Assembly: GCA_017553505.1 (NCBI GenBank)
Contig: JAFZLD010000025.1
Location: 62,001 to 126,000 of the forward strand
Origin: Lachnospiraceae bacterium
GTDB lineage: Bacteria; Bacillota; Clostridia; Lachnospirales; Lachnospiraceae
Reading direction: 5' to 3'
Length of the DNA: 64,000 bases
Shown here: positions 31,015 to 53,698 of the stretch, piece by piece
How positions within the stretch are numbered: position 1 is the stretch's first letter
How the letters are laid out: every line of letters starts with the position of its first letter
Program-made: the position numbers and the translations under genes
The notes under the pieces: generated by a model
The model's input: only the letters and a program-made list of their open reading frames with translations
Told to the model about the DNA's origin: nothing
Database searches by the model: none

Positions 31015-31043
31015 AGTGCAATTTATTGTGAATGTATTATAAT
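31015..31043 (+). promoter_or_regulatory. Candidate proximal promoter of the island
   Basis: A perfect TATAAT (31038-31043) lies 32 bases before the first start codon; the -35 region (AGTGCA at 31015-31020) is poor, so it may need an activator. Confidence 0.45.
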
Positions 31044-31074
31044 ATGATTTGAGTTAACAAGGAGACTTATTGCA

Positions 31075-31899
31075 TTGGATAATGTGGGTATCTTTCGAAT
31101 ATACAATGAGATAAAAAAGTATATTGATAAAATTCCTAAGGTGGGAATTGTTTTAGGTTCCGGATTAGAAAATGATTTGTGTCATTTTGATATCAAGAAA
31201 GAGATTGACTTAAGATATATTGAAGGATATCCCAAGACTACAGTAAAAGGTCATAGCGGAAAGCTTCTTTACGGTACACTAGAAGGCGTAGAGACAATTG
31301 TTTATCTTGGACGTTTGCATTTTTATGAAGGATATTCAATGGATGAAGTGATTGTCCCGATGAGAATAGCCGGATTGTTAGGAATTGAAGTCATGATTTT
31401 GACCAATTCTGCCGGCGCCATCAATTGCAACTATAAAGTTGGAGATTTTGTACTTATTGAAGATCATATCTCATTTTTTGTACCTAACTGTTTAAGAGGA
31501 GAAAATGATGAGCGCTATGGAATAAGGTTTCCTGATATGACACACGTCTATGACAAAGTGCTGATTGAAAAAGCAGAAGAAATAGCCAAACGTGAAAATA
31601 TCAATATCCACAGAGGCGTTTATGTGCAACTTTCCGGTCCCAGTTTTGAAACTGCGGCAGAGATTAGGGCTCTTAAAAATTTAGGAGCCGATTTAGTCGG
31701 TATGAGTACAGTTTGCGAGGCAATTTGCTGCAGACATATGAAAATGCGTGTGTGCGGTATTTCTTGCGTTTCTAATATGGCTACAGGAATGATCGAGCAG
31801 GAGCAATCATATAAGGATGTTAAAAATACTGCTAATTCTGTAGGGAACAAGTTTGTGACGTTAGTTTGCGGAATCGTAAAAAGCCTGGCTGAGGAATAG
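31075..31899 (+). CDS. Purine nucleoside phosphorylase (PNP/MTAP family)
   Basis: The 274-residue protein is a trimeric-type purine nucleoside phosphorylase: VGIVLGSGLEN (phosphate loop), VKGHSGKLLYG, GRLHFYEGYSMDEV, LTNSAGAINCNYKVGDFVLI, QLSGPSFETAAEIRAL and LGADLVGMSTVCEA. It splits purine nucleosides with phosphate. It starts with TTG at 31075 behind AAGGAG (31059-31064). As the first gene of the island, beside a 5'-deoxyadenosine/MTA deaminase-type enzyme, its likely substrate is 5'-deoxyinosine or a related product, giving hypoxanthine and a 5-deoxypentose 1-phosphate. That substrate is inferred, and ordinary inosine or guanosine is possible. Confidence 0.88.
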   Translation: MDNVGIFRIYNEIKKYIDKIPKVGIVLGSGLENDLCHFDIKKEIDLRYIEGYPKTTVKGHSGKLLYGTLEGVETIVYLGRLHFYEGYSMDEVIVPMRIAGLLGIEVMILTNSAGAINCNYKVGDFVLIEDHISFFVPNCLRGENDERYGIRFPDMTHVYDKVLIEKAEEIAKRENINIHRGVYVQLSGPSFETAAEIRALKNLGADLVGMSTVCEAICCRHMKMRVCGISCVSNMATGMIEQEQSYKDVKNTANSVGNKFVTLVCGIVKSLAEE

Positions 31900-31906
31900 C
31901 ATTTCT

Positions 31907-33178
31907 ATGAAAATTAGAATTTACAATGCAAAAATATTGACATTGGAAGATAAGCGTGAAATTTTCCGCGGAGAGATTTGGATTGATGGCGAATATATTT
32001 CCTATGTAGGAAGCAATCCGACCATCTCCGGACAGCAATTTGATAAGGAAATCGATGCGGAGGGCAACTTGATTATGCCCGGGTTCAAAAATGCTCATAC
32101 CCATTCGGCGATGACGTTTGGAAGAAATTATTCGGATACATTAAGGTGTGAAGAATGGTTAAATAAAGTCATTTTTCCAATGGAAGCCAAGATGACGCCA
32201 GAGCATGTATATGTTCTTTCAAAAATAGCTTTTTTGGAATATATCGTAAATGGAATTACGGCGTGTTTTGATATGTACTATGAATCTCAATCCATGTCAA
32301 GACTTTCGGAAGAATACGGGTTCAGAACTGTTTTATGCGGGGCAATTAACAATTTCAGGGAGAAACCGGAAACAATAGAAGATGCATTCTTACGTTACAA
32401 CAATAGTCATAAGTTTATATCTTATAAATTTGGGATACACGCCGAATATACAACGGATTTATCAATATTGAAAAAAATGTCCGATTTGGTGCATAAGTAT
32501 AAAGAGCCGTTTTATACACATATTTCAGAAACGGAGCAAGAGGTAAGCGATTGTAAGAGAAGGTATGGCAAAACGCCTGCAGAACTGTTTGACAGAATTG
32601 GGCTATTTGATTATGGTGGTGGGGCTTTTCATGGGGTATTTCTTACCGACGAGGATCTTAATATCTTTAAAAGTCATAATTTGTCTATCATAACCAATCC
32701 GGCTTCTAATTTAAAACTTGCCAGCGGTGTTGCAAAAATATGTCAGTTTGTTGAAAAGGGAATTAACGTTGGAATAGGTACCGACGGTCCTGCAAGTAAT
32801 AATGGACTTGATATGTTTAAAGAGATGTATTTGGTATCTACTCTTCAGAAGATGATTAATAAAGATGCTTCGGTTTGCCCGCCCGAGCAAGTCATCAGGT
32901 TCGCAACTAAAGGAAGTGCCATAGCTATGGGACTGAATAATTGTGATACTCTTTCAATCGGCAAATGTGCGGACGTAATTATGATTGACTTGAAAAAGCC
33001 GAATATGCAGCCTATCAACAATCTGGAAAATGCATTGGTATACAGCGCTAATCCGTCCAATGTTTTAATGACAATGATTGCCGGAGACATTAAGTACTAC
33101 AAGGGAAAGATTCTTATTGACGAAGATATAGAGGCTCTATATTCCCGTGCAAGAGAAATTGTAAAAGAACTCGCATAA
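31907..33178 (+). CDS. Amidohydrolase, MTA/SAH/5'-deoxyadenosine deaminase family
   Basis: The 423-residue metal-dependent hydrolase has the HxH pair His64 and His66 in NAHTHSAMTFGR. Further zinc-site residues are in FGIHAEYT, THISETEQEV and the Asp of GIGTDGPASNNGLDM. Family members deaminate 5'-methylthioadenosine, S-adenosylhomocysteine or 5'-deoxyadenosine (DadD). In this island the plausible role is to remove 5'-deoxyadenosine, and SAH from B12-dependent methylation, made by the nine radical SAM proteins, passing the deaminated product to the phosphorylase encoded 7 bases upstream. General guanine or other nucleoside deaminases of this superfamily are less likely from the sequence. Confidence 0.85.
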   Translation: MKIRIYNAKILTLEDKREIFRGEIWIDGEYISYVGSNPTISGQQFDKEIDAEGNLIMPGFKNAHTHSAMTFGRNYSDTLRCEEWLNKVIFPMEAKMTPEHVYVLSKIAFLEYIVNGITACFDMYYESQSMSRLSEEYGFRTVLCGAINNFREKPETIEDAFLRYNNSHKFISYKFGIHAEYTTDLSILKKMSDLVHKYKEPFYTHISETEQEVSDCKRRYGKTPAELFDRIGLFDYGGGAFHGVFLTDEDLNIFKSHNLSIITNPASNLKLASGVAKICQFVEKGINVGIGTDGPASNNGLDMFKEMYLVSTLQKMINKDASVCPPEQVIRFATKGSAIAMGLNNCDTLSIGKCADVIMIDLKKPNMQPINNLENALVYSANPSNVLMTMIAGDIKYYKGKILIDEDIEALYSRAREIVKELA

Positions 33179-33227
33179 TAAAACAAATTGAATAACTAAA
33201 GTAGAAAGGGTTAATCGGGAGCCTGGT

Positions 33228-33875
33228 ATGCCTTGTTTTACAAAAGAACAGGAAAATGTAATTAAAACTATCTATTTTGTTACTAAGCTTGGGAAGGCTA
33301 GGGGCAATTTTGAAAAAGAGTTAAATACTTTGTATTTTAAGGAGAATGCAAGTTATAGCACAAAATTATCTTATGCATTTTATCAGCATTATACTTTGTG
33401 GCAGACTTATTCCGCTCTAGATGCCCCGGATACGATTTGTCTGGAAATACTGAAGATATATGACGAGTTACTTACGGGCAAAGATGAAGACTGGTTTATA
33501 GAATGTTTGAAGTTGATGTTTTATGAACAAAAGTATGATGGCATATACGATACGGATGTATGCACGCAGTCCATATCCCGAATGTTGGAATTGCAGAAAC
33601 TTGTCGGTGATAATATACCTGATTACATTATCACATATATATTGGAGGCTTTTTTCCTTTTTAAAAGAGGAGAAACAAAAAAAGCTGTCAGAGCGTTAAA
33701 TGAGGGCTTGAATATATGTGCTAAAGGGAACATAAGATGTGTATTGTATAAACATTTTAAAGGCTTTTTAGAGCGTTTTTTGTATCAGACTCATAATTGC
33801 AAAGAGGATGGATTAAGTATACTGCTGGAAAAAATAGCTGATTGTTATTTTTCGTCCGGTAAATTTGGACGTTAA
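33228..33875 (+). CDS. Hypothetical helical protein (island)
   Basis: I do not recognise this 215-residue protein. It is predicted to be nearly all helix, with Tyr-rich and Leu-rich repeats of roughly 35 residues (for example DYIITYILEAFFLFKRGETK) that suggest a TPR-like superhelix. It has no signal peptide or membrane segment, and its few Cys do not form a metal motif. It lies between the nucleoside-salvage pair and the radical SAM genes. A similar-sized helical protein is encoded at 42816, next to the small acidic protein; the two may be binding or scaffold partners. Confidence 0.7.
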   Translation: MPCFTKEQENVIKTIYFVTKLGKARGNFEKELNTLYFKENASYSTKLSYAFYQHYTLWQTYSALDAPDTICLEILKIYDELLTGKDEDWFIECLKLMFYEQKYDGIYDTDVCTQSISRMLELQKLVGDNIPDYIITYILEAFFLFKRGETKKAVRALNEGLNICAKGNIRCVLYKHFKGFLERFLYQTHNCKEDGLSILLEKIADCYFSSGKFGR

Positions 33876-33913
33876 GACAATTGAAATGAATAGCAGAGGG
33901 GCAATAAAAAACT

Positions 33914-34828
33914 ATGGAATGTATGGAAAAAGTATTAAAGAATAAGCCTAATTCGCTGGCAGTGGAAGTTACATACAGGTGTAATTTAAATTGCGTCTAT
34001 TGTTCCAAAAGAGAATTGGGTGAGAATCACAGAGATATTTCGAAAGAATTGCTTGAGAGACTTGACCCTGTAATTAAAGATATGAAAAGGATTGTCATAT
34101 GCGGTATTGGAGAAAGTTTTTTGTACTCTGGCTTATATGACCTCATTTCAAATTATCCCAAACAAAAATTTACCATAGTAACAAATGGCACTATTTTGAT
34201 CGATTATGAAATCTTAGATGCTCAAAAGAATATTGAACAAATCATTTATTCGGTAGATGCGGTTGAGCAAGAAATAATGGATAAGATTTGCGGTAAATAT
34301 AGATTTGATAATCTTTTGAGAAATTTGGATTTGTTAGACAAGTATCGACGTACACGTCAAAGAAGAATCACAAGCATATTGAATTGCACTATAAATAAAT
34401 ATAATTTAGGCCAGATGGAAAAGCTGGTTGAATTTGCCAAAACTTATAATTTTAATGTGATTCATTTTTCTTTGCCAAGAGGTGGGGAAGATTTTATTGA
34501 TAAAGAAAAAGAAAATATTACAGCTGGAATAGAGAGGGCAAAAGAGATGGCAAAGAATTATAAACTGTTCTTTGTTAATCCTTTTGATGTTTGCTGCGTA
34601 TTTTATGATTGCGTTCCGCCGTATATAACGCTTGACGGAAATGTGTATGCATGTGCCGAAACTTTATATATTTCAGATTCTTTGGGTAATATTTTCGAAA
34701 GACCATATGATGAAATACTCAATGATGCTAAATATAAGGAGTTTCAAACCGGTCAAAGTTGCAAAAAGTGCGGATTTTTGCAGAATACTTTCATAGGAAG
34801 ACAAATTCATGATGGATATGATAGATAA
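33914..34828 (+). CDS. Radical SAM/SPASM-type protein, family A copy 1
   Basis: The 304-residue protein has the CxxxCxxC cluster site at Cys23, Cys27 and Cys30 (TYRCNLNCVYC). The usual GGEP strand is replaced by CGIGESF, followed by IVTNGT and SVDA. The C-terminal part has a reduced SPASM-like set of cysteines: CCVFYDC, ACAETLY with GNIFE, and CKKC at the end. It shares CGxGES, NGxxxIDxE and YRFDxLxxNL with the proteins at 37673 and 45654, so the three are paralogues. The substrate is unknown; SPASM proteins act on peptides, sugars or aminoglycosides. It overlaps the next gene by 20 bases. Confidence 0.88.
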   Translation: MECMEKVLKNKPNSLAVEVTYRCNLNCVYCSKRELGENHRDISKELLERLDPVIKDMKRIVICGIGESFLYSGLYDLISNYPKQKFTIVTNGTILIDYEILDAQKNIEQIIYSVDAVEQEIMDKICGKYRFDNLLRNLDLLDKYRRTRQRRITSILNCTINKYNLGQMEKLVEFAKTYNFNVIHFSLPRGGEDFIDKEKENITAGIERAKEMAKNYKLFFVNPFDVCCVFYDCVPPYITLDGNVYACAETLYISDSLGNIFERPYDEILNDAKYKEFQTGQSCKKCGFLQNTFIGRQIHDGYDR

Positions 34829-35774
34829 GAACACATTGAATTTGATAAGAAAAAAGAATAAGACAATTCACTTTAACATTACGAATAAATGCAATGTTAA
34901 GTGTCGGCACTGCATAAACTCACATAGTGATACTGTTTTGGGTGAAGCAGAAGAAAACATGGTTTTGTCATGCTTAAACAAGGTTCGTGAACTTGGATAT
35001 AAAAAGATAAACATTGTGGGCGGAGAGCCATTTTTAAAGCTTGATTTGTTAAAAAAAATAGTAGATAAAGCCACCGAATTGGGGATTATTGTTGGAATTA
35101 CCACTAACGCATATTGGGCTGTCTCGGTAGAAAAGGCTGAAGATATACTTGAACAGTTACATAATGTTAAGTTGATATTGTTAAGCACTGATTTTTTTCA
35201 TATGGAGAATATTCCTATGGAAAACATCAAAAATGCTGTAACTGCATGCAAAAACAAATCAGTTTCTACAGCCATTAATACAGTATGCTTAACAAAATCT
35301 CAACAAGAAAAGTTAAAGGACATTCTTTCTTGGGTTCCGAAAGATGTATTTGTCAATTATGGGATAATGATGCCTTTTGGCGGGGCTAAGGATTTTGCCT
35401 CAGAAATAGAACGTGATTTTTGCCCGAAGAAAAAAGACGAAATACCTGATTTTTGTGATGTGGAAGAAAATTATGTTGATTGTGAAGGCGGCCTATATAC
35501 TTGCTGCATGTCAACGCTTTGCACCACTACAAAACAGTTCGGCTTTGGAAATTTGTATAAACAGAATACGGAAGATATTCTTACAGCTAAGGATATGGAT
35601 GGGATATATAAATTGGTTTCGGGTATGGGAATCAGAGGACTTGTAGATTTGTTGGAAGAATGCAAAAGTGCCGATCTTTATCTTGATAAAAAATACAGTT
35701 CGCAATGTGAGTTTTGCGTTTCTGTTTTAAATGATTTGCAAGTAGTCAATGAATTGAAAGCAAAACTTAATTGA
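34809..35774 (+). CDS. Radical SAM/SPASM-type protein, family B copy 1
   Basis: The 321-residue protein has Cys28, Cys32 and Cys35 (NKCNVKCRHC), a canonical VGGEPF strand and ITTNAYWA. The phrase LSTDFFHME matches SSDxxHLE in the two following proteins. The C-terminal half has DCEGGLYTCCMSTLC, the shared GIRGLVDLL element and a closing CEFC. AGGAAG lies 8 bases before ATG 34809, whose reading frame begins inside the previous gene. Together with 35817 and 36734 it forms a tandem triplet that probably arose by duplication. Confidence 0.88.
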   Translation: MMDMIDKNTLNLIRKKNKTIHFNITNKCNVKCRHCINSHSDTVLGEAEENMVLSCLNKVRELGYKKINIVGGEPFLKLDLLKKIVDKATELGIIVGITTNAYWAVSVEKAEDILEQLHNVKLILLSTDFFHMENIPMENIKNAVTACKNKSVSTAINTVCLTKSQQEKLKDILSWVPKDVFVNYGIMMPFGGAKDFASEIERDFCPKKKDEIPDFCDVEENYVDCEGGLYTCCMSTLCTTTKQFGFGNLYKQNTEDILTAKDMDGIYKLVSGMGIRGLVDLLEECKSADLYLDKKYSSQCEFCVSVLNDLQVVNELKAKLN

Positions 35775-35816
35775 GTAAGCGATGAAAATGATTATCTTTT
35801 GCAGGCAGGGGGTTAT

Positions 35817-36716
35817 GTGACAAAGTTAAAAGGAATAATGCTGAATATATGCTCTACATGCCATATGCATTGTAAGCATTGCAGCAATATACATACATTG
35901 CGTGATAGAAAATTGATGGATATAGCCATAGCGGAAAAATGTATCAACGAAATGGATGCTTTAGGGCTTGAGACCATAACGCTTGTAGGCGGAGAACCTT
36001 TTGAAGAATTTGAACATTTAAGAATAATTTGTGAGGCCGCATACAATAAAGGAAAAAAGATAAGAATTATTACCAATGGTTTTTGGGCATATGACATAAA
36101 TGATGGTGAAGAAAAACTCTCAATGCTTCCCGGCGTTTCCGATATTGTTTTAAGCAGTGATTTATACCATCTTGAATTTGTTTCAGAATCTACAGTGAGA
36201 AACGCAGTCAATATATGCAAAAAGAAAAATATTTCGATTTCAATTCATGCAGTTTGCGCCAATAAAGAAGATGCAAAAAAAGTCAAGGAAATATATAAAG
36301 ATTTGGGCAAGTATATTTTAATTAATACCGGTGCGCCTATGCCTATAGGAGCGGCCAAAGACTTGGATATAGAACGCTTTAAGCTAAGAGACAGGATAAA
36401 TCGGTTTTCCAAATATTGCAGTATCGGAAATATATATGTGGACATTAATGGAAATGTATATGGGTGTTGCAATGCAAGTCTGGCAGTAGACGACTTTCTG
36501 TTTAATGGAAATCTTTTAGAAAAATCCCCCAAGGAAGTGTTTGGCATGGTCGATAAAGACGCTAAATTCCAATATCTCCAGAAAAATGGGCCTAGAGGCT
36601 TAAAAAATGTATTGGCTGCAAATGAAAATCGCGAATTATTTTTTGACAAAGAGTACACGTGCGAATGCGATGCTTGCGTAGATATATCAAAAAGCATGAA
36701 ATATAAAGATTTATAA
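35817..36716 (+). CDS. Radical SAM/SPASM-type protein, family B copy 2
   Basis: With GTG 35817 as start (AGGGGG ends 4 bases before it) the protein has 299 residues. The cluster cysteines are Cys15, Cys19 and Cys22 in STCHMHCKHC, with an extra Cys12. It has VGGEPFEEF, ITNGFWAYD, SSDLYHLEF, a VYGCCNAS cysteine pair, GPRGLKNVLA and a final CECDAC. A longer TTG start at 35799 is possible but has no better ribosome site. It is closest in layout to the genes on either side. The reaction is unknown. Confidence 0.86.
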   Translation: MTKLKGIMLNICSTCHMHCKHCSNIHTLRDRKLMDIAIAEKCINEMDALGLETITLVGGEPFEEFEHLRIICEAAYNKGKKIRIITNGFWAYDINDGEEKLSMLPGVSDIVLSSDLYHLEFVSESTVRNAVNICKKKNISISIHAVCANKEDAKKVKEIYKDLGKYILINTGAPMPIGAAKDLDIERFKLRDRINRFSKYCSIGNIYVDINGNVYGCCNASLAVDDFLFNGNLLEKSPKEVFGMVDKDAKFQYLQKNGPRGLKNVLAANENRELFFDKEYTCECDACVDISKSMKYKDL

Positions 36717-36733
36717 GAGAGTGAAGGTACAGA

Positions 36734-37669
36734 ATGATTACAAATTTTTTTGAGGAAGGGGTTTACATAAGTCCGACACTTAGATGCAACGCAGCTTGCA
36801 GACATTGCGTTGCCAGTGAAGATACTGCAGATATTCCAGATGTTGGACGAGAGAAACTATTAGATTGGATTAATCAATTTGCCGAGAGTGGTATTAAGTC
36901 GGTACGATTTGTTGGGGGTGAGCCATTTCTTGTACTGACGGATTTGGTCGTCTGGACAAAGCGGATTAAAGAATTGGGAATGGAAACTACCATTGTGACA
37001 AACGCATCATGGGGCAAGACAAAAGAAAGTGCTTGTAAAACAATGGCTATGCTTCCGCATTTGGATAATTTAATTATCAGTTCAGACAAGTTTCATCTTG
37101 AATTCGTTAAACCCGAAACGGTTATAAATGCGATAGAAGCGGCATTGCAGTATGGTAAGAATGTGGTAATGAATATTACATACATAACACAGAAAGACAT
37201 ACATGAAATGATGCAACTGTTTGATGCTTATCAGAACCGCATTATGATTCAAATGGTAAAAACCATGCCTTTTAACGGACCTGAAGCGGAAGAAATAGTA
37301 AAGCATTGCTATTTCAAGAATCCTGAAAGAACTCCTAAGTTTTGTTGGGTTGGAAACTGTTTTGTAAGCGCGACCGGTGATGTATATGCTTGCTGTCAAT
37401 CAAGTGCCGCTACAGAAACAAATTATTTAACTCTGGGCAATTTAAATGAAGATAAATTTTCGGATTTGGTTGAAAAGATTCATAAAAAAGATGTTTTCAG
37501 ATTTATTGTGCAAAATGGTCCGCGTGGTATCGTGAAAGCTTTTTTGGATAGTCCATATAAAGACGAATTAATCGGAATGGAGTTTGCGTCGGGGTGCGAG
37601 ATTTGCCAAAAACTTTTAAACGACCCGGATAAGTATGAGTTTTTTTTAAAACATATACAGGAGGAATAA
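36734..37669 (+). CDS. Radical SAM/SPASM-type protein, family B copy 3
   Basis: The 311-residue protein has Cys18, Cys22 and Cys25 (LRCNAACRHC), VGGEPFLV, VTNASWGK and SSDKFHLEF. A second cysteine set lies in FCWVGNCFVSATGDVYACC, with GPRGIVKAFL and the terminal CEIC. The auxiliary cysteines suggest one additional iron-sulfur cluster. It completes the family B triplet and is followed after 3 bases by a family A member. Confidence 0.88.
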   Translation: MITNFFEEGVYISPTLRCNAACRHCVASEDTADIPDVGREKLLDWINQFAESGIKSVRFVGGEPFLVLTDLVVWTKRIKELGMETTIVTNASWGKTKESACKTMAMLPHLDNLIISSDKFHLEFVKPETVINAIEAALQYGKNVVMNITYITQKDIHEMMQLFDAYQNRIMIQMVKTMPFNGPEAEEIVKHCYFKNPERTPKFCWVGNCFVSATGDVYACCQSSAATETNYLTLGNLNEDKFSDLVEKIHKKDVFRFIVQNGPRGIVKAFLDSPYKDELIGMEFASGCEICQKLLNDPDKYEFFLKHIQEE

Positions 37670-37672
37670 AGC

Positions 37673-38584: not shown

Positions 38585-38588
38585 AAGT

Positions 38589-39485: not shown

Positions 39486-39499
39486 CGGTATAAAGAAAA

Positions 39500-42420: not shown

Positions 42421-42445
42421 TAACTTATTTAAGGAGGCTATGGTT

Positions 42446-42790: not shown

Positions 42791-42815
42791 TATTTCCCAA
42801 TAAGGAGAGAACATA

Positions 42816-43460: not shown

Positions 43461-43486
43461 TAAATCTAAGATAAAAAGGATATGTA

Positions 43487-46532: not shown

Positions 46533-46545
46533 GGGTTATAGAGAC

Positions 46546-48234
46546 ATGAAAGAACAAAAATTTTGTATCATACAAGTTCCCAGTGAGGCTGTATTTTTTG
46601 GCAGAATAGGTGCTAAACTTCCGCCTTTGTCACTTGGGATTCTCGCCGGCTATTTGCGCACACACGATATTGACTTAGATATGTATGATCTGGCGACAAG
46701 CGTAGATGTTTTTGGTAGAAATACGAATATTGAAAAGCTTGCTAAATTTTATGACAAAGAAAAGGTATATGACTATATTGAAGGGGGCAATAATGCTTTT
46801 TTTGATGAGTTTGCAAAAAATGCATTAATAGGTATAGATTGGGACAAATACGATATTGTAGGTATTTCGGTAGGACCCGATTTGACTTTTTTGCAAACTT
46901 TTTGCGGAATGATAATTGGAGCATATGTTAAAAAGACATATAAAAAGACACTTACTTTCGGTGGATTTAATCTTACGACATATGTTGCCTATCAACCGAT
47001 TTATAATGAAATTTTTGAGAAATTCTTTGATAACCTGGGTTATATCATCAATGGGCCGGGCGAGGAGTCTCTCGAACGTTTGATTCGTTTGATCAGGCAG
47101 GGTTATGCCTTAGGTGACGCTGAAATCAGAAAAATAGATGGTTTGTGTTATAAAAATGAAGCCAATGAACTTGTTTTTAATAAGTTTGCTAACAGAAGAG
47201 TTGTTATGCCGGACTTTGACGGCTTGCATTTGAAAGAATATGAAAATTACATAAATCCGGAAGCGTATGAAGAAAATATGGTTGCGTTATACCGCTATCC
47301 TTTTGCATTTACAAAAAAGATGCAAAGAAACGCTTTAGATAGTAAGTATAAACCTTTTTTAATTATTCCGTATATTTTCAATTACAACTGCCCTTATAAT
47401 TGCAGCTTTTGTACCGAAAGTAACCCGGAAGCGCCAAGACCTGTAATAGGCGCTGTTCAACAGACAGTATCGGAAATACAGCAATTAAAAGAAAAATACA
47501 AGACGCCTTATTTTTACTTCATAAATAATGCTATAAATCTCTCTAAGAAATATGTAACGGAGTTTTGTACGGAACTGCTTGAGCGCGGAATTGAAATATA
47601 TTGGTCCGATTGCGCCAGATTTGATAATACAAGCCGTGAAATACTTGAATTGATGCATAAAGCAGGATGCCGAAAACTGGTATTCGGTATGGAAAGCGGC
47701 TGTACCGAGATGGTTAAACTCGTTAACAAAAAGATAGATTTATCTTATGCCGAGCAAGTACTTCAATGGTGCAGTGAAATCGGAATATGGGCAGAATTAG
47801 AGGTAATTATTGGAATGCCGGGAGAAACTCCGGAGTATTTTGAAGAAAGCCTTCAGTATATCAAGAAAAATATAAATAATATCAGTTTTTATACTACGAA
47901 TCACTATATTCCCATGCCCGGAAGTATTATGTATAGGTTTCCGGAAAAATATAATATTACTATTGAATCGGATAAAGATCTCGACAAAGTTTTACGGCTG
48001 GATAAGGAGATTTTGCTTAGCGGAAGGAATCCAGGCAACTATAATAATACTATGCGCTTATACTATTACTCGGAAATCGGTGGAAGGGATGCAAAAACCG
48101 TATCAGAGGACACAAAGAAAAGAATAGCAAGGATAAGAAAAATATTATTGGGAAAAGTCATGAAAGAAATGATGACTTATATGAGCAAAGGCTATGTTGA
48201 TATGTCGGATTTAAAAGAATTAAGTGATATGTAA
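46546..48234 (+). CDS. B12-binding-type radical SAM protein, copy 2
   Basis: The 562-residue protein is a paralogue of the one at 40744, with the same layout. The N-terminal domain has KLPPLSLGILAGYLRTHD and IVGISVGPD, and the cluster residues are Cys282, Cys286 and Cys289 (CPYNCSFC). FGMESGCTEMVKLVNK and AELEVIIGMPGETP follow. Differences are concentrated in the linker between domains and in the C-terminal 100 residues, suggesting different substrates or sequential steps on one substrate. Confidence 0.88.
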   Translation: MKEQKFCIIQVPSEAVFFGRIGAKLPPLSLGILAGYLRTHDIDLDMYDLATSVDVFGRNTNIEKLAKFYDKEKVYDYIEGGNNAFFDEFAKNALIGIDWDKYDIVGISVGPDLTFLQTFCGMIIGAYVKKTYKKTLTFGGFNLTTYVAYQPIYNEIFEKFFDNLGYIINGPGEESLERLIRLIRQGYALGDAEIRKIDGLCYKNEANELVFNKFANRRVVMPDFDGLHLKEYENYINPEAYEENMVALYRYPFAFTKKMQRNALDSKYKPFLIIPYIFNYNCPYNCSFCTESNPEAPRPVIGAVQQTVSEIQQLKEKYKTPYFYFINNAINLSKKYVTEFCTELLERGIEIYWSDCARFDNTSREILELMHKAGCRKLVFGMESGCTEMVKLVNKKIDLSYAEQVLQWCSEIGIWAELEVIIGMPGETPEYFEESLQYIKKNINNISFYTTNHYIPMPGSIMYRFPEKYNITIESDKDLDKVLRLDKEILLSGRNPGNYNNTMRLYYYSEIGGRDAKTVSEDTKKRIARIRKILLGKVMKEMMTYMSKGYVDMSDLKELSDM

Positions 48235-48265
48235 AATAAACGATATATGAAAAGGAGAGTATTAA

Positions 48266-48997
48266 ATGATTGAATTAAAGCAGGTGACGAAGCGATTCAA
48301 AAACAAAGCAGTTGTCAACAATGTTTCCTATTCGATTAAAGAAGGGGAAATATTTGGCCTGATTGGTCCAAACGGAGCCGGAAAGACAACTTCTATCAGA
48401 ATGATGACTGCATTGTTGGAACCCACCGAAGGAGAAATCTATATCAACGGGATGAAAGTGGCCAAAAACAACAAAAAGCTATTCGAACAAATAGGTGTTG
48501 TTTTTGAACTTCCAAATTTATACCGCAAATCTTCAATAAGAAAGAATTTGAAAATTTTTGCTGACCTTTATGGTGTTAAAGACAGTAGAATTGATGAAGT
48601 TATGGAAGATTTCCAGTTGACTGATAAGCAAGACATGCGCGTTGAAAAATTGTCCAAAGGCTGGAAGCAAAGAGTACTTATTGCCCGTGCGGTTTTACAT
48701 AATCCCAAAGTTTTATTTTTGGATGAACCGACCAGCGGCCTAGACCCTAACACACAAGAGTTAATAAGACGCTATATAGAAAAGATAAATCAAAATGGTA
48801 CAACAATTGTCATAACAACTCATGATATGAACGAGGTAGAGCGCTTGTGTCACTCTGTGGGATTTATGTATCAGGGTAATTTGGCTAAAAAAGGAAACTT
48901 AAAAGAGATTATTCAGGAATATAAAGAAGCAAATAAGGGTGCGGATATATCACTTGCAAATATATTTGCGATTATCACAGGAGGAGAATTGAGCTAA
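48266..48997 (+). CDS. ABC transporter ATP-binding protein
   Basis: The 243-residue protein has Walker A GPNGAGKTTS, signature LSKGWKQRV (a variant of LSGGQ), Walker B VLFLDEPTSGLDP and switch His in ITTHDMNE. It belongs to the exporter class that pairs with ABC-2-type permeases, such as the next gene, which overlaps it by one base. It probably exports the island's product or gives self-protection. The substrate cannot be read from the sequence. Confidence 0.94.
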   Translation: MIELKQVTKRFKNKAVVNNVSYSIKEGEIFGLIGPNGAGKTTSIRMMTALLEPTEGEIYINGMKVAKNNKKLFEQIGVVFELPNLYRKSSIRKNLKIFADLYGVKDSRIDEVMEDFQLTDKQDMRVEKLSKGWKQRVLIARAVLHNPKVLFLDEPTSGLDPNTQELIRRYIEKINQNGTTIVITTHDMNEVERLCHSVGFMYQGNLAKKGNLKEIIQEYKEANKGADISLANIFAIITGGELS

Positions 48998-49683
48998 TGG
49001 TTGTTTTAAGACAAATAAAAAACGAATTTAAAGAACTCGTTGTAAATCCTGCTATTTTGGGTGTAATAATTTTGCCGATATTCATGTCAAAGGTCGTTAC
49101 TTACGCAATGAAAGGAATTGAAGCAGGGTTCCTTCTGTTATGTGTATGGATTTTGTTTGCGGAAGTTATGGTTGGTATTATGCTTACCGGTCCTAATCTT
49201 ATAGAAGAAAGAGAGTCAAAGACTTTTGACGCGCTTTTATGTACTCCGCTTACTTACGGGAAAATTATTGTTTCAAAATGTGTTCCGATTTTAATTTGTT
49301 CATTATTTTCACAGATTATGGTGTTTGTGGTTAATGAAGGGATTAACAGTAAATTGCCGTCATTATTAGGAATAATGTTATTGGGAGGAACTGTTTTTGT
49401 AGAAATAGGCGCAATTATAGGTTTGCTTATTGAATCCTCCAAAACCGGTTCGGCAATCAGTGCAATGGTAATGGTAGCATTATATCTAGTTGTTTCCGTA
49501 TATCCTTCTTTGCCTAAGTGGACTTACTCAATCTTTATGATTTTGCCCAGCGTAGAAGTTGTCGAGGTAATGAATGCCTTAATTAATTCGCAGGGAATTC
49601 TCTGGAAGGAAGTTGGTTTGTTATCTGCCTGGTTTGTTATTTTGACAGGTGCTATTTTCTTTATTGGGAAGAAAAAGTATTAG
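48997..49683 (+). CDS. ABC-2-type permease
   Basis: The 228-residue protein has about six hydrophobic helices (for example EAGFLLLCVWILFAEVMVGI and ISAMVMVALYLVVSV). The cytosolic loop LIEERESKTFDALLCTPLT after the second helix is typical of ABC-2 permeases. With the ATPase it would form an exporter containing two copies of each. Confidence 0.88.
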   Translation: MVVLRQIKNEFKELVVNPAILGVIILPIFMSKVVTYAMKGIEAGFLLLCVWILFAEVMVGIMLTGPNLIEERESKTFDALLCTPLTYGKIIVSKCVPILICSLFSQIMVFVVNEGINSKLPSLLGIMLLGGTVFVEIGAIIGLLIESSKTGSAISAMVMVALYLVVSVYPSLPKWTYSIFMILPSVEVVEVMNALINSQGILWKEVGLLSAWFVILTGAIFFIGKKKY

Positions 49684-49715
49684 TTGGTTATTTTGGAGAA
49701 AAGTTGGGGTGTTTT

Positions 49716-50504
49716 ATGAAGAATGTGGTGGGATTTGTACCGGCAGGCGGAAAAGGTATGAGGATGAAGCCCTTCAAATTGATGAAGGAATTGCTTCCTG
49801 TTATGATAGACAATGAGAATCAGGAAACTGAGGTCTCTTTGTTGATAGAAAACGCTGTAAACGTGTTGCATAAAGGCGGAATCAAAAATGTTGTATGTAC
49901 AGTAAATCATGATAAAGAAATTCTGGTAAAGATTTTGTCCGATATGGGTGCAGACTATTCTGACATGAAGATGGCTTTTGTATATCAAAGGGATCTTGAT
50001 AACTTATACGGGCTGCCTTTGGCGATTGCGGCTGCTGAACCTTTTTTGAGAGGGCATAGCGTTTGCATGAAATTTCCTGATACCATTATTTATCCTCTTA
50101 ATTGTTTTGATGAGCTGTATGCTTTTCATTGCGAAAAAAAATCAGATCTTACTTTGGGAGTTTTTCCTACGAACAATGCAAGAAATCTTGGTCCGGTTGT
50201 GATTGGCCCGGACAACAAAGTAGAACGATTGGAGGATAAGCCTGAAAATCCGTCTGCCGATAATACATGGAATGTATTAATATGGGAAGACTCTTTTCTG
50301 GATTTATTGATGAGTGAAGTTGAAAGCTATCGAAATGATGACATTGCCAGAAAAAAGGAACTTAAGATTTATGACATTATGTTAAAGGCAATTGAAGAAA
50401 AACTAAGTGTTAACGCATATTTGTTCGAAAGCGGGAAATGCATCGACATATCATGTATTCAAGATGCAAGAGTACATTGGAATCATCAGTCTTCAAGTAA
50501 GTGA
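49716..50504 (+). CDS. Sugar-1-phosphate nucleotidyltransferase-like protein
   Basis: The 262-residue protein has the GT-A-like nucleotidyltransferase signature FVPAGGKGMRMKPFKLMKEL (LAGGxGtRl-type), followed by LLPV, KFPDTIIYP and the phrase LEDKPENPS that sits in the sugar-binding half. Relatives such as RmlA make NDP-sugars. Supply of an activated sugar would fit the two glycosyltransferase-like genes of the island. A ligand other than a sugar phosphate cannot be excluded. GGGGTG precedes ATG 49716; TTG 49704 is in frame but overlaps it. Confidence 0.82.
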   Translation: MKNVVGFVPAGGKGMRMKPFKLMKELLPVMIDNENQETEVSLLIENAVNVLHKGGIKNVVCTVNHDKEILVKILSDMGADYSDMKMAFVYQRDLDNLYGLPLAIAAAEPFLRGHSVCMKFPDTIIYPLNCFDELYAFHCEKKSDLTLGVFPTNNARNLGPVVIGPDNKVERLEDKPENPSADNTWNVLIWEDSFLDLLMSEVESYRNDDIARKKELKIYDIMLKAIEEKLSVNAYLFESGKCIDISCIQDARVHWNHQSSSK

Positions 50505-50516
50505 CAGGTGATGGCA

Positions 50517-53500
50517 ATGACGAATGCAGACATTATAAGCAGATTCCAATGTGTAGTTAAAAACTTTGCGAATGAGAAAGCACTTACGTTTAAAAACAAG
50601 TCATATACATATCGAGAACTCGAAAGTATAACGGATACTTTTTCGCAAACAATTAGCAATTATTTAACCCCGGGAGCAGTTGTGGGGATTCTTATGGAGA
50701 AGTCTGCGGATTACGTGATAAGCATTTTGGCTATACTTAAGGCCGAATGCACGTATTTACCGCTGGACAGCATATATCCAATACCCAGAATTCAGTCTAT
50801 ACTGGATGACTCGGGATGCAAAGTGTTAATATCCGATCATGACATACATGATTTGGATGTAACTGTGATTAATATAAATGCAAACAAAGGAAAAACAACT
50901 AAAGATTTGCCGAAAGAGACCTTGAAGAGAAATGTGCGAGTACAGTATTCATATCTGATTTATACTTCAGGTTCCACCGGTAAGCCGAAAGGCATACGTA
51001 TAACGGGAGAAGCCATACTTAATTTAGCAAAACGGATGAGCGAGGAATTAAAATGTTTTAATGGGGGAAAACGCATTGCAATGCTTTCGCCCTTTGTTTT
51101 TGATGTTTCTGTAGGACAGATGTATATGTCGCTTTTATTTGGGAATGAACTTGTACTTGTCCCGGATGAAGTAAAATATTCGTTGGCTCTGTTAAAAGAT
51201 TTCTTTTCTGAAAATGAAATATATTGTTGCGACTTTACTCCTACAAGACTTGATTTGCAGGTTTCTTATTATGAGAAACTCAGATGTCAGCATTTTTTCC
51301 CGTATATTATAGTGTGCGCAGGTGAATCACTTCATACAGAACTGGCAAAAAGAGTAATGAATTCAAAAGGCTGCAAAAGCAGATTGTATAATTATTATGG
51401 CCCGACAGAAATATGTGTTTATTGTGCATATCATGAAATTAGTGAAAGTGATTTGAATAACGAAAGTCCCAATATCCCGATTGGTAAAGCTTTAGAAGGA
51501 TTTCAGCTATATATCTTTAATGAGGAAATGAATCTTTGTAAAGATTATGAGATTGGTGAGCTTTATATCGGTGGAATAGGTGTATCCAAAGAAGGTTATG
51601 TGAATGATGTCAAACTTAACGAAACCCAGTTCATTGATAATCCTGCTTATCCCTATCAAAGGCTCTACAAAAGCGGCGATTTGGCCAAAAGAAGGAGTAA
51701 CGGAGATATAGAATGTCTCGGTCGTTGCGACGAGCAAATTAAGATTCATGGATATAGAGTTGAATTGTCTGAAATTGAAAATGCAATTGAAAGAATACCG
51801 TCTGTTTCACGTGCTAAGGTTATTCTGATAAATGATGGTGATATAGATGGCCTTGCTGCGTATTATACAAAAAATGAAGATATTAAAGTAGTTGAAATCG
51901 ATAATGCATTAAGAAAGTTACTCCCTTATTACATGATTCCGACATATTATATTAAGGTTGATGCCTTTTCGTATAATGTAAACGGTAAGCTGGATAAGAG
52001 TGTTTTGCCTGATTATCACAGCGGGCAAAAGTACGTTAAAGAATCAGAAAACAAATATGATATTGACAATAGTATAGGCGCAAAATTTATGCAATATTGT
52101 GCGAAAGTTCTTAATTTGACCAAGGTTGAATATGAAGATCGGTTTGTTTCGCTTGGCGGAGATTCTTTAAATGCCTTTGAACTCAATGCTTTACTGGAAC
52201 TTGAATGGAACGTTTCCCTAAATATTTATGAATTGGTAGGACCATATAGTTTGGGGCGTCTTGCGGAAATTCTTACGACCCGAATTAAGGAGAATTCCGA
52301 TAAAAAGCCTTTAACCAATACCTGCATATTTAAGTGTAAAGTAAATTCCTATCAAAAAGTATTACTGAAAGAAGAATTAAAGAAGGAAGCAAAAGACGAT
52401 AACGATAAGAATAATTTGCCTCTGTACAACATGGTTTACATGTTGGAATTAAAACAAAATGTATTTATAGAAAAATTGCAAAAAGCATTCAATATGGTTT
52501 TGCTAAGTCATGAAATGCTACGAACACATTTTGTTAAATCAAAGAATTCTTTCGAAATATGTCGTGATGAATATAAGGAATATACTGTACATAAAGAATA
52601 TATTAAAGATATTGCTTCAGTTGATGTAAGTATTTATGCCAAAAGGTTTGATGTTCTTTTACCTGAATTGTATCAAATTATTTTATTTGAAGACGAAAAC
52701 TGTAAACAAGCTGTTTTACTAAATATCCATCATCTTATCGTCGATTACGCATCAATTCAAATAATCGTAAATGAATTGTTTTCTTTTTACTATAACCAAG
52801 ATCTTGACGTGCCGCTATATAGCGAGTGTGCTTTCTTTTCAACCAAGAATTCTCAACCTGATAAAGCAGGCTTAAATTTTTGGAGAAAGCAATTAAATAA
52901 TCGCCCTGAGTCAGTCGGCTTTTCCGGTGAAATTAATCATGATGAGGTTGCGGAAAACATTGATTCGTTTAAGTTTCAAATTGATAAAACGGATAAAATG
53001 AAAGATTTTTGTCGGGATAAAGGCCTTACGGAATACTATTTATGTTTTGGCGCATTGGCTTTTTTACTTTATTGTGAGGAAAAGAAAAAAGAATTTATTA
53101 TAGGGACATATTCAATGGGAAGGGATTGTAAAGGTGTTCCGGCAAATTATATCGGGTTTTTTACAGATACAATTCCTTTAAGGCTTCAGATACAGGGGAC
53201 TCTTGGCGTAAGTATGTTTCTGAATATGATGAAAAATAAATGTGTCGATATATTGCAGTACGGCGGTGTTGACGTGGGTAACCTTTTTCAATATATGGGC
53301 TTTAAAGATTTGTGCAAAGGGAGTTTATTTGATGTAGCCTTTAATTTTATAAAAGAATATAAATTTGAATTTAAAGAACATAATCAGAAGATTCTTTTAC
53401 GGGATTACAGCAGAAATCCCCAATCGATATCGTTTTTGCTAACCGGTTTGTCAAAACAAAATTCTATTCAGTTTGAAATCAATTTTGAAAAAAATAGATA

Positions 53501-53630
53501 TTCGCTAAATAATGTTTGTTTACTGGCGGAAAAATATAAGTTTATTATTGATTCCATTTTAAGGAACCCCGATTGCACTACAGATAGATTTGTGGAATTG
53601 TACAAAAAAAATTTTGGAGGAACTCGGTAA
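50517..53630 (+). CDS. Stand-alone NRPS, adenylation-carrier-condensation
   Basis: The 1037-residue protein has an adenylation domain (about 5-500): YTSGSTGKPKG, YNYYGPTE, GELYIGGIGVSKEGY, LYKSGDLAKR, GRCDEQIKIHGYRVE and NGKLDKS. A carrier domain comes next, with phosphopantetheine site Ser550 in LGGDSL, and then a condensation domain whose active site is HHLIVDY (His738, His739, Asp743; the usual Gly is Tyr). YIGFFTDTIPLRL is the downstream condensation motif. There is no thioesterase, and this is the only NRPS module. It probably activates one amino acid and joins it to a free amine or hydroxyl acceptor made by the island. ATG 50517 is 7 bases after AGGTG. The amino acid is unknown. Confidence 0.92.
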   Translation: MTNADIISRFQCVVKNFANEKALTFKNKSYTYRELESITDTFSQTISNYLTPGAVVGILMEKSADYVISILAILKAECTYLPLDSIYPIPRIQSILDDSGCKVLISDHDIHDLDVTVININANKGKTTKDLPKETLKRNVRVQYSYLIYTSGSTGKPKGIRITGEAILNLAKRMSEELKCFNGGKRIAMLSPFVFDVSVGQMYMSLLFGNELVLVPDEVKYSLALLKDFFSENEIYCCDFTPTRLDLQVSYYEKLRCQHFFPYIIVCAGESLHTELAKRVMNSKGCKSRLYNYYGPTEICVYCAYHEISESDLNNESPNIPIGKALEGFQLYIFNEEMNLCKDYEIGELYIGGIGVSKEGYVNDVKLNETQFIDNPAYPYQRLYKSGDLAKRRSNGDIECLGRCDEQIKIHGYRVELSEIENAIERIPSVSRAKVILINDGDIDGLAAYYTKNEDIKVVEIDNALRKLLPYYMIPTYYIKVDAFSYNVNGKLDKSVLPDYHSGQKYVKESENKYDIDNSIGAKFMQYCAKVLNLTKVEYEDRFVSLGGDSLNAFELNALLELEWNVSLNIYELVGPYSLGRLAEILTTRIKENSDKKPLTNTCIFKCKVNSYQKVLLKEELKKEAKDDNDKNNLPLYNMVYMLELKQNVFIEKLQKAFNMVLLSHEMLRTHFVKSKNSFEICRDEYKEYTVHKEYIKDIASVDVSIYAKRFDVLLPELYQIILFEDENCKQAVLLNIHHLIVDYASIQIIVNELFSFYYNQDLDVPLYSECAFFSTKNSQPDKAGLNFWRKQLNNRPESVGFSGEINHDEVAENIDSFKFQIDKTDKMKDFCRDKGLTEYYLCFGALAFLLYCEEKKKEFIIGTYSMGRDCKGVPANYIGFFTDTIPLRLQIQGTLGVSMFLNMMKNKCVDILQYGGVDVGNLFQYMGFKDLCKGSLFDVAFNFIKEYKFEFKEHNQKILLRDYSRNPQSISFLLTGLSKQNSIQFEINFEKNRYSLNNVCLLAEKYKFIIDSILRNPDCTTDRFVELYKKNFGGTR

Positions 53631-53635
53631 ATGTG

Positions 53636-53683
53636 ATGTAAAACGATTCTTGTTTTTAATTAGTATTATTAACTGTTTTACAT
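53636..53683 (+). repeat. Inverted repeat after the NRPS gene
   Basis: ATGTAAAAC (53636-53644) and GTTTTACAT (53675-53683) form a perfect 9-bp stem with a 30-base loop. It may be a weak terminator of the island or a junction feature. Confidence 0.45.
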
Positions 53684-53698
53684 TTGAGACTTTCTGTG

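What the first reader, a model, noticed from the sequence alone, without database searches (positions are those of the whole stretch)
31075..53630. Undescribed biosynthetic island with nine radical SAM proteins in 15 kb
Genes at 33914, 34809, 35817, 36734, 37673, 38589, 40744, 45654 and 46546 each carry a CxxxCxxC cluster site. They sit among two glycosyltransferase-like proteins, a nucleotidyltransferase, an A-T-C NRPS, an ABC exporter and a possible precursor or carrier protein. I know of no described pathway with this gene set. The product would be an extensively radical-modified small molecule or peptide.
Basis: partly seen in the sequence, partly recalled or inferred. Interest (0 to 1): 0.93.

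Follow-up and report, generated by a model that had tools for sequence, protein, structure and literature searches.

The report
Peptide sugared with recycled radical-enzyme waste
A 23-kb DNA island in a clostridial bacterium carries nine radical-SAM enzyme genes, a small peptide gene, glycosyltransferase-like genes and a nucleoside-salvage-type gene pair, and it is predicted to make an undescribed sugar-decorated peptide whose sugar is likely recycled from the waste product of its own radical enzymes.

Summary
Nine radical-SAM (rSAM) genes lie in 14.3 kb of 20 same-strand genes (31075-53630). They sit in a 23.2-kb, 35% GC island absent from the same site in two same-genus genomes. The protein at 42446-42790 is an Os1348-family (NHLP-clan) RiPP precursor; its core, A-[V/I]-Y-T-P, is kept in all 16 clusters compared (Clostridia and the actinomycete Virgisporangium).

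Nine rSAMs is not the defining feature: clusters carry 1 to 9. The shared core is precursor, an HxsC4-like rSAM, two DUF6365 proteins (GT-B fold predicted), a beta-cradle protein and a nucleotidyltransferase.

Two other clusters share this pair; two more carry methylthioribose kinase. By published pathways both lead to 5-deoxyribose-1-phosphate. Three of these five genomes show no isomerase to degrade it, and all five have the usual nucleosidase. I infer that by-product 5'-deoxyadenosine becomes an NDP-sugar attached to the peptide, as LipP-LipM-LipN do for aminoribose. Eleven of 16 clusters lack such genes beside them. No reaction was tested; product and bioactivity are unknown.

The parts
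30513..53698 (.). Island: 23.2 kb present here, absent at the same site (between rnhA and nrdD) in two same-genus genomes
   Evidence: blastn to G013 (L095): flanks 92-94% identical, match stops at 30513 and resumes at 53699 with 23 bp between; to G002 (L096): 30512 / 53696; GC 34.9% against 42.8% and 42.1% in the flanks
30773..30802 (+). Promoter-like sequence ahead of the first gene (weak evidence)
   Evidence: 11 of 12 consensus matches, but promoter-like sites in the region are no more frequent than in shuffles (51 found, shuffle mean 64.3)
31075..31899 (+). PNP: trimeric purine nucleoside phosphorylase with Tyr246 in place of the 5'-OH-binding His (human His257); predicted to make 5-deoxyribose-1-phosphate from 5'-deoxyinosine
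   Evidence: NF006054 above cut-off; residue check; only match of this PNP type found in its genome
31907..33178 (+). DadD-like amidohydrolase (5'-deoxyadenosine/MTA/SAH deaminase group)
   Evidence: PF01979; NF005557 5'-deoxyadenosine deaminase 265.5 bits, below its equivalog cut-off 522; HTH, H-x-S-E, H and D motifs kept
33228..33875 (+). U1: helical protein, relative of 42816
   Evidence: no family match; aligned with the U family
33914..34828 (+). R1: radical SAM/SPASM
   Evidence: PF04055, PF13186
34809..35774 (+). R2: radical SAM, YydG (peptide epimerase)-like
   Evidence: TIGR04078 over full length, 85.5 bits, below cut-off 300
35799..36716 (+). R3: radical SAM, YydG-like
   Evidence: TIGR04078 88.6 bits, below cut-off
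36734..37669 (+). R4: radical SAM, YydG-like
   Evidence: TIGR04078 98.1 bits, below cut-off
37673..38584 (+). R5: radical SAM/SPASM-like
   Evidence: PF04055; SPASM just below cut-off
38589..39485 (+). R6: radical SAM, HxsC4-like; the one rSAM shared by the whole cluster family
   Evidence: NF038332 134.6 bits, below cut-off 500; found in 15 of 16 clusters on held DNA, the sixteenth ending at a contig edge
39500..40747 (+). GT1: DUF6365 protein, GT-B-like glycosyltransferase (predicted by kinship with GT2)
   Evidence: PF19892 270 bits; not modelled itself
40744..42420 (+). R7: radical SAM of the PhpK/HpnJ/BchE/ApyD (B12-dependent) group
   Evidence: PF04055; TIGR04479, NF050148, TIGR03471 below cut-offs; no Pfam B12-binding match
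42446..42790 (+). PRE: RiPP precursor, Os1348 family of the NHLP clan (ORF opens at 42407; a near-identical 114-aa database copy, P0001, starts here)
   Evidence: NF038399 41.9 bits, cut-off 40; homologues, alignment A1, P0001
42701..42715 (+). Core motif Ala-Val-Tyr-Thr-Pro, predicted site of modification
   Evidence: A[VI]YTP in 53 of 53 aligned rows, the window among them, and in all 16 clusters
42816..43460 (+). U2: conserved helical protein next to the precursor
   Evidence: in 14 of 16 clusters by tblastn, some matches weak; alignment A3
43487..45664 (+). GT2: N-terminal DUF6365 GT-B domain (about 1-420) fused to a beta-cradle domain (about 424-725) that is a separate gene in most relatives
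   Evidence: PF19892; AlphaFold model with best PDB matches including VinC, CalG1, SpnP, SpnG; C-terminal relative modelled at pLDDT 85
45645..46532 (+). R8: radical SAM/SPASM
   Evidence: PF04055, PF13186
46546..48234 (+). R9: radical SAM of the PhpK/ApyD/Sden_1168 (B12-dependent) group
   Evidence: NF050148, TIGR04479; NF038361 over residues 9-539, below cut-off
48266..48997 (+). ABC exporter ATPase
   Evidence: PF00005
48997..49683 (+). ABC exporter membrane protein
   Evidence: PF12698
49704..50504 (+). NTP: sugar-1-phosphate nucleotidyltransferase-like protein
   Evidence: PF00483 54.6 bits; weak RmlA/AglF matches; a gene of this kind in the held DNA of all 16 clusters
50508..53630 (+). 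NRPS with order A-T-C, predicted to add one amino acid to an external amine
   Evidence: PF00501, PF00550 (at its cut-off), PF00668; HHLIVDY in C domain and GGDSL in T domain

Best explanation
The island encodes 20 genes including a RiPP-type precursor, and it likely makes an exported, sugar-bearing peptide product whose sugar would be 5-deoxyribose recovered from 5'-deoxyadenosine, the by-product of its own radical-SAM enzymes. Shown here by sequence, comparison and model: the gene set, the island's edges, the conserved core A-V-Y-T-P, the GT-B fold prediction for DUF6365, the changed phosphorylase pocket and the co-occurrence pattern. Inferred: (1) rSAM enzymes (R6 in every version, others as tailoring: YydG-like epimerases, SPASM enzymes, B12-type enzymes) act on the core and release 5'-deoxyadenosine; (2) the DadD-like enzyme deaminates it to 5'-deoxyinosine; (3) the PNP splits that into hypoxanthine and 5-deoxyribose-1-phosphate; (4) NTP activates this to an NDP-sugar; (5) GT1 and GT2 attach it to the conserved Tyr or Thr of the precursor; (6) the NRPS adds an amino acid to an amine; (7) the ABC pair exports the product after cleavage by an enzyme not recognised in the island. 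Clusters without the salvage genes would take the sugar phosphate from housekeeping enzymes or use another sugar.
For: RiPP: NF038399 above cut-off; A[VI]YTP in 53 of 53 aligned rows and in 16 of 16 clusters, two of which (G322, G329) were found through the leader model, whose match in the window stops before the core. Sugar machinery is universal: NTP and the DUF6365 GT2 domain in 16 of 16 clusters, GT1 in 15 of 16 on the locus; GT2 resembles VinC, CalG1, SpnP, SpnG. Salvage module is part of the system: PNP and DadD adjoin the cluster in three loci (window, G322, G329); methylthioribose kinase (TIGR01767, 409.5 and 449.5 bits, cut-off 275) is the end gene of two others (L011, L019), and in both genomes it is the only such kinase found, while 13 of 18 genomes searched have none. 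Both are named routes to 5-deoxyribose-1-phosphate (PMC6079011, passages; PMC6302742, passages). Pocket: human His257 hydrogen-bonds the 5'-OH (PMC12648331, passage); the three cluster PNPs have Tyr, Tyr, Met there, while 24 of 25 background PNPs have His, and the one exception (Thr, G056) lies within 6 kb of an aldolase, an MtnA-type isomerase and a DadD-like gene. No exit: no PF01008 isomerase match in 3 of the 5 module-bearing genomes, including this one. Clean-up already covered: MTA/SAH nucleosidase above cut-off in all 7 genomes tested. Precedent: LipP, LipM and LipN make and attach NDP-5-amino-5-deoxyribose by the same order of steps (PMC4902027, passage).
Against: 11 of 16 clusters have no such gene beside them although all have NTP and GTs, so there the sugar may come from elsewhere or be different. 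G322 and G329 do have an isomerase elsewhere, and G329 also has a second-route kinase next to its isomerase. The L018 genome carries an aldolase-like, MtnA-type and phosphorylase set, the catabolic type, 14 kb from its cluster. The DadD-like protein scores below the curated cut-off for 5'-deoxyadenosine deaminase, and MTA or SAH remain possible substrates; MTA would give 5-methylthioribose-1-phosphate. PNP keeps the Asn of 6-oxopurine enzymes; its substrate is inferred from one residue. No nucleotidyltransferase acting on plain 5-deoxyribose-1-phosphate is known to me. NTP matches named sugar families only weakly. No peptidase is recognised, so release is unexplained. G060 and G066 completeness is not given, so absence there is weaker than in the window genome (99.7% complete). 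No expression, activity or metabolite data.
Confidence: 0.5

Rival explanations
1. The deaminase and phosphorylase (or kinase) are there only to clear 5'-deoxyadenosine and related nucleosides that inhibit rSAM enzymes; the peptide is glycosylated with an ordinary hexose, or the DUF6365 proteins do something else.
For: 5'-deoxyadenosine inhibits rSAM enzymes (PMC8102628, abstract); the window has nine rSAMs; 11 of 16 clusters lack the module beside them.
Against: The module does not track rSAM load: clusters with it have 9, 9, 4, 2 and 2 rSAMs, clusters without it up to 9. All 7 genomes tested already have the nucleosidase. A kinase after nucleosidase cleavage is not needed to relieve inhibition by the nucleoside, yet L011 and L019 carry one with no isomerase found in the genome.
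Confidence: 0.25
2. The precursor is a scaffold for a small cofactor-like or antibiotic-like metabolite cut from Tyr (as in PQQ or mycofactocin), with rSAMs, aminotransferase, carbamoyl- and pyruvyl-transferases in relatives as tailoring enzymes.
For: The core is invariant across phyla, which is not typical of bacteriocin cores (recalled); tailoring enzymes vary between clusters; mycofactocin likewise couples an rSAM RiPP to glycosylation (recalled).
Against: No peptidase or oxidase recognised in the island; the window operon ends in an exporter and an NRPS, which fits a secreted compound.
Confidence: 0.2
3. It is a proteusin-like or epipeptide-like peptide: D-amino acids and C-methyl groups put in by YydG-like and B12-type rSAMs are the point, and sugar is minor.
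For: Three YydG-like and two B12-type rSAMs; NHLP-clan leader.
Against: Minimal clusters keep one rSAM (L023) or two (L018, L019, G329), while the GT2 domain and NTP are in all 16; TIGR03793 NHLP leader and TIGR04078 are below their cut-offs; the core is five conserved residues in an acidic tail.
Confidence: 0.12

Closest known systems
Os1348 family / Frankia_peptide (NHLP-clan RiPP precursors; NF038399, PF14407)
   Same: Leader scores above the NF038399 cut-off; some source databases already name homologues 'Os1348 family NHLP clan protein'.
   Different: NF038399 is a leader model; the papers that my searches listed give no product or pathway for it. PF14407 is below its gathering score, and one paper lists it among ATP-grasp-linked (graspetide) precursors (PMC8939145, passages); no ATP-grasp enzyme was matched in the island.
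LipP-LipM-LipN aminoribosylation of A-90289/muraymycin-type nucleoside antibiotics
   Same: Logic: base displaced by phosphate, sugar-1-phosphate activated with an NTP, then glycosyl transfer; a 5-substituted ribose-1-phosphate is the intermediate (PMC4902027, passage).
   Different: Acceptor is a uridine derivative and the sugar comes from uridine by transamination; here the acceptor would be a ribosomal peptide and the source an rSAM by-product. Sequence kinship was not tested.
DHAP shunt / 5-deoxyribose salvage (MtnK or phosphorylase, MtnA/DrdI, DrdA)
   Same: Upstream half: phosphorylase, or nucleosidase plus kinase, to 5-deoxyribose-1-phosphate; the G056 locus L097 shows the same deaminase and PNP types in a catabolic-looking setting.
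   Different: No isomerase or aldolase seen directly beside the cluster's enzymes, and no MtnA-type isomerase match in three of five genomes.
7-Deoxysedoheptulose from 5'-deoxyadenosine in Synechococcus elongatus
   Same: A bioactive compound made from the rSAM by-product (PMC8102628, abstract and passages).
   Different: That route uses promiscuous housekeeping enzymes without a gene cluster; here the genes sit in the cluster.
Epipeptides (YydG/EpeE) and proteusins
   Same: rSAM epimerase-like and B12-type rSAM enzymes beside a small precursor.
   Different: Matches are well below curated cut-offs; the GT and nucleotidyltransferase core is absent from those systems (recalled).

Membership tests
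RiPP precursor, Os1348 family of NHLP clan | Leader matches NF038399 above its curated cut-off | tested here: met
   41.9 bits against 40
RiPP pathway | Precursor gene adjoins modifying enzymes in many genomes | tested here: met
   16 of 16 clusters
RiPP pathway | Core peptide is modified and released | not testable with these tools
   needs mass spectrometry; no peptidase gene recognised
Proteusin | NHLP leader (TIGR03793) above cut-off | tested here: not met
   19.9 bits against 50.9
Epipeptide (YydG) | rSAM matches TIGR04078 above cut-off | tested here: not met
   85.5, 88.6 and 98.1 bits against 300
Radical SAM superfamily (nine proteins) | PF04055 above gathering score and CxxxCxxC | tested here: met
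   9 of 9
GT-B glycosyltransferase (GT2 N-domain) | GT-B fold | tested here: met
   AlphaFold model; Foldseek E down to 2e-11, probability 1.00, target-normalised TM 0.54-0.63 to VinC, CalG1, SpnP, SpnG, though whole-alignment rmsd is 8-10 A; activity untested, GT1 not modelled
5'-Deoxyadenosine deaminase (NF005557) | Score above equivalog cut-off | tested here: not met
   265.5 bits against 522; the other families shown for this protein are also below their cut-offs
5'-Deoxynucleoside-acting PNP | Loss of the 5'-OH-binding His | tested here: met
   Tyr246; background 24 of 25 His. Substrate itself not tested
DHAP shunt | Isomerase and aldolase with the kinase or phosphorylase | tested here: not met
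   no PF01008 match in the window genome, G060 or G066; aldolase absence beside the clusters judged by eye from the ORF lists. G322 and G329 have an isomerase elsewhere
LipP-LipM-LipN-type NDP-pentose pathway | Phosphorylase, nucleotidyltransferase and GT in one cluster | tested here: met
   sequence kinship with the Lip enzymes and the reactions were not tested
B12-dependent rSAM methyltransferase (R7, R9) | B12-binding domain | tested here: inconclusive
   no Pfam B12-binding match at E 0.1; R9 matches NF038361 over residues 9-539 below cut-off

The most novel reading that the evidence does not exclude
A new, phylum-spanning RiPP class in which the conserved Tyr/Thr of an A-V-Y-T-P core is glycosylated with 5-deoxyribose that the cluster itself recovers from 5'-deoxyadenosine, so that the waste product of radical-SAM catalysis becomes a building block of the product; two unrelated supply modules (deaminase plus phosphorylase, or methylthioribose kinase) have been recruited to the same end.
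Probability: 0.42. Interest if true: 0.92.

Novelty: new variant of a known kind. Interest (0 to 1): 0.82.

Why it matters
If right, it links two things kept apart so far: rSAM peptide tailoring and the fate of its by-product. Each rSAM turnover would yield both a modified peptide and the sugar to decorate it. It would give the first biosynthetic use of NDP-5-deoxyribose that I know of, assign a likely function to DUF6365, and give genome miners a strict core motif (A-V-Y-T-P) for a family whose tailoring sets range from one to nine rSAM enzymes. The steps are cheap to test with purified enzymes.

Tried and rejected
Unique one-off island: rejected, 15 further loci. Phosphonate/phosphinate product (R7, R9 resemble PhpK P-methyltransferases; NTP and R9 match Sden_1164 and Sden_1168 weakly): not pursued, since all matches are below cut-offs and no phosphonate gene was matched in the island. 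NrdD, NrdG and dUTPase after the NRPS as part of the system: rejected, they lie outside the island, and nrdD follows the empty site in G013 and G002. Direct repeats at the island ends: no shared word of 9 bases or more between 30401-31100 and 53401-53900. Riboswitch or leader RNA ahead of the operon: none at E 0.1. Plasmid copies of R6: none at E 1e-30. R9 alone as a probe in genome contigs: no relative found. A-domain specificity: looked at by eye against recalled code positions, too uncertain to report. Beta-cradle domain: Foldseek and VIA-align give lipid-cradle and barrel folds (lipovitellin, LmcA, RseB); no function drawn.

Limits and rows dropped: homologues were collected by shared words with the query, which favours conserved cores; G322 and G329, found through the leader model, are the check on this. 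One search gave 14 of 397 genomes with a match, the window's own included; I fetched regions of 7 others, of which 4 hold the cluster (two are L013 and L015 again, as L052 and L051) and 3 do not (L054, L055, L056); the remaining weak matches were not fetched, nor were the weak G559 matches; 26 background PNPs were taken, L084 does not cover the position and is left out of the 25; L083 is partial. rSAM numbers: one search prints raw counts of 11 for L011 and L013 and 10 for L014; I removed overlap between fetched pieces, one interrupted gene counted twice and one relic, giving 9, 8 and 8. L017 and L020 end at contig edges, so their counts are lower bounds. ORFs in the GC-rich Virgisporangium loci were judged by tblastn only. 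Some same-genus genomes are incomplete (62-99%).

Full report
WHAT IS THERE. The interval 31075-53630 holds 20 genes on one strand with gaps of -20 to 49 bp. In order: purine nucleoside phosphorylase (PNP), DadD-like amidohydrolase, helical protein U1, five radical-SAM genes R1-R5, R6 (HxsC4-like), DUF6365 protein GT1, R7, the precursor PRE, helical protein U2, GT2 (DUF6365 plus a second domain), R8, R9, ABC ATPase and membrane protein, nucleotidyltransferase NTP, and an A-T-C NRPS. Nine of the 20 carry CxxxCxxC against 0.19 expected from shuffled proteins, all nine match PF04055 above its cut-off, and the genome as a whole has 38 such matches.

AN ISLAND WITH KNOWN EDGES. In same-genus genome G013 the DNA matches the window at 92% up to 30513 and again at 94% from 53699, with 23 bp between; G002 shows the same edges at 83-85%. 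The 23.2 kb between them has 34.9% GC against 42-43% outside. The genes that follow (nrdD, nrdG, dut) and precede (tyrS, cytidine deaminase, a MutS-like ATPase, rnhA) are not part of it. In the other 15 same-genus genomes I did not compare the DNA at this site; all 17 match the ATPase and NrdD queries at least weakly. None of the 17 shows a PNP of this type, though several are incomplete.

A FAMILY OF CLUSTERS. The precursor passes the Os1348-family model. A scan of species genomes with its alignment gave 13 loci; the leader model in the window's family gave two more (G322, G329). Counting the window, 16 clusters: Clostridia, and two Virgisporangium (actinomycete) genomes. By tblastn on the held DNA, the window counted in each figure: PRE, GT2 N-domain, GT2 C-domain and an NTP in 16 of 16; GT1 in 15 of 16 (L020 has GT1 matches on other contigs); R6 in 15 of 16 (L017 ends first); U2 in 14 of 16. 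rSAM number per cluster: window 9, L011 9, L012 9, L013 8, L014 8, L015 7, L016 4, L017 at least 3, L018 2, L019 2, L020 at least 4, L021 3, L022 3, L023 1, G322 4, G329 2. Other tailoring genes vary: class-III aminotransferase (L013, L014, L015, L021, L022), carbamoyltransferase (L016, L017, G322), pyruvyl transferase (L012, L020), and aspartate decarboxylase beside the NRPS (L011).

THE CORE. A-[V/I]-Y-T-P is present in 53 of 53 aligned rows and in all 16 clusters, including the two found through the leader. It sits between an NHLP-like leader and an acidic tail. Such constancy is not typical of a bacteriocin (recalled) and points to a fixed scaffold with variable tailoring (inference).

SUGAR MACHINERY. 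GT2 residues 1-420 are modelled with high confidence; Foldseek's best solved matches are GT-B enzymes, among them the antibiotic glycosyltransferases VinC, CalG1, SpnP and SpnG, with rmsd 8-10 A over the whole alignment. Its C-terminal domain, modelled from a free-standing relative at pLDDT 85, is a beta-cradle or barrel. NTP belongs to PF00483, the nucleotidyl transferases. By the family matches no NDP-sugar dehydratase, epimerase or ketoreductase is among the 20 genes; the only island enzyme expected to produce a sugar-1-phosphate is PNP.

WHERE THE SUGAR MAY COME FROM. PNP and DadD adjoin the precursor cluster in three loci. The G322 pair is 74% and 79% identical to the window's although the other tabulated cluster proteins are 22-51% identical, so the pair seems to have moved as a cassette. 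In L011 and L019 the end gene is instead a methylthioribose kinase above its curated cut-off. The literature names both as routes from 5'-deoxyadenosine to 5-deoxyribose-1-phosphate: by a phosphorylase, or by a nucleosidase plus a kinase (PMC6079011, passages); phosphorolysis of 5'-deoxyinosine by MtiP gives the same compound (PMC6302742, passages). Kinase genes of this kind were found in 5 of 18 genomes, and in the L011 and L019 genomes the cluster copy is the only one found.

THE POCKET. In PNPs the substrate's 5'-OH hydrogen-bonds to His257 (human numbering; PMC12648331, passage). The window and G322 enzymes have Tyr there, G329 has Met. Of 25 PNPs from relatives that cover the position, 24 have His. 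The single exception (G056, Thr) lies within 6 kb of a fuculose-type aldolase, an MtnA-type isomerase and a DadD-like deaminase, i.e. in what looks like a 5'-deoxynucleoside salvage locus. So loss of this His goes with 5'-deoxynucleoside context in an independent case.

BUILDING BLOCK OR CLEAN-UP. Three tests bear on this. First, degradation by the known route needs an MtnA-type isomerase: PF01008 has no match in the window genome, in G060 (L011) or in G066 (L019), but does in G322 and G329, away from their clusters. Second, clean-up is already served: MTA/SAH nucleosidase is above cut-off in all 7 genomes tested. Third, the module does not follow rSAM load: 9, 9, 4, 2 and 2 rSAMs with it, up to 9 without. 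Against: 11 of 16 clusters lack the module beside them; two of five genomes keep the isomerase, and in G329 it sits next to a methylthioribose-kinase-like gene; the L018 genome has a catabolic-type set 14 kb from its cluster.

MECHANISM AND PRECEDENT. I read the island as: rSAM reactions on the core release 5'-deoxyadenosine; DadD and PNP turn it into 5-deoxyribose-1-phosphate; NTP makes the NDP-sugar; GT1 and GT2 attach sugar to Tyr or Thr of the core; the NRPS adds an amino acid; the ABC pair exports. The order base displacement by phosphate, activation with an NTP, glycosyl transfer is described for aminoribose (LipP, LipM, LipN; PMC4902027, passage). Every reaction here is inferred. Release of the product is unexplained.

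NOVELTY. No paper held in the library contains the terms Os1348 family, DUF6365, Sden_1168 or NHLP clan, and the listings of term searches for this gene combination show no account of it (titles and abstract openings seen, several lists capped). PF14407, the nearest Pfam precursor family, is named in a graspetide paper (PMC8939145, passages). Preprints and most subscription papers are not in that library. I file it as a new variant of a known kind (rSAM RiPP); the by-product-to-sugar reading, if shown, would be a new principle.

Noticed in passing
26332-26583: T-box leader upstream of tyrS (26639-27862), above the Rfam cut-off.
   Followed up: no
L097 (G056): 3697-15410: Deaminase-like gene, PNP with Thr in place of His257, uridine-phosphorylase-like protein, MtnA-type isomerase, fuculose-type aldolase and a PnrA-like ABC importer together: a likely 5'-deoxynucleoside salvage locus using deaminase plus PNP.
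   Followed up: partly
L040 (Clostridium sp. KNHs205), about 10 kb upstream of U1 of the L011 cluster: Apparent degraded remains of a second related cluster: R7-like fragment and a GT1-like fragment with stops.
   Followed up: no
G070 (Virgisporangium aurantiacum) C54:7275-9794 and C53:70152-71375: Further DUF6365-like genes outside the precursor cluster, two of them adjacent.
   Followed up: no
L041:11963-12355: Aspartate 1-decarboxylase (TIGR00223 above cut-off) whose ORF overlaps the end of the L011 NRPS gene; beta-alanine may be an NRPS substrate there. The window has no such gene beside its NRPS.
   Followed up: partly
L090:12385-14859 (Tissierella sp. P1): Aldolase-like, MtnA-type (PF01008) and phosphorylase genes about 14 kb from the L018 cluster, separated by unrelated genes.
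   Followed up: partly
L013:4142-5151 and L018:16857-17626: Reading frames interrupted in an epimerase-like rSAM gene and in a nucleotidyltransferase gene of relatives.
   Followed up: no
33228-33875 and 42816-43460: U1/U2 family of helical proteins with up to three copies per cluster and one invariant Trp; function unknown.
   Followed up: partly
L043:10544-13123 (Ruminiclostridium papyrosolvens): Two tandem FAD-dependent oxidoreductase-like genes downstream of the L012 cluster; one was scanned with Pfam, the other is 56% identical to it.
   Followed up: no
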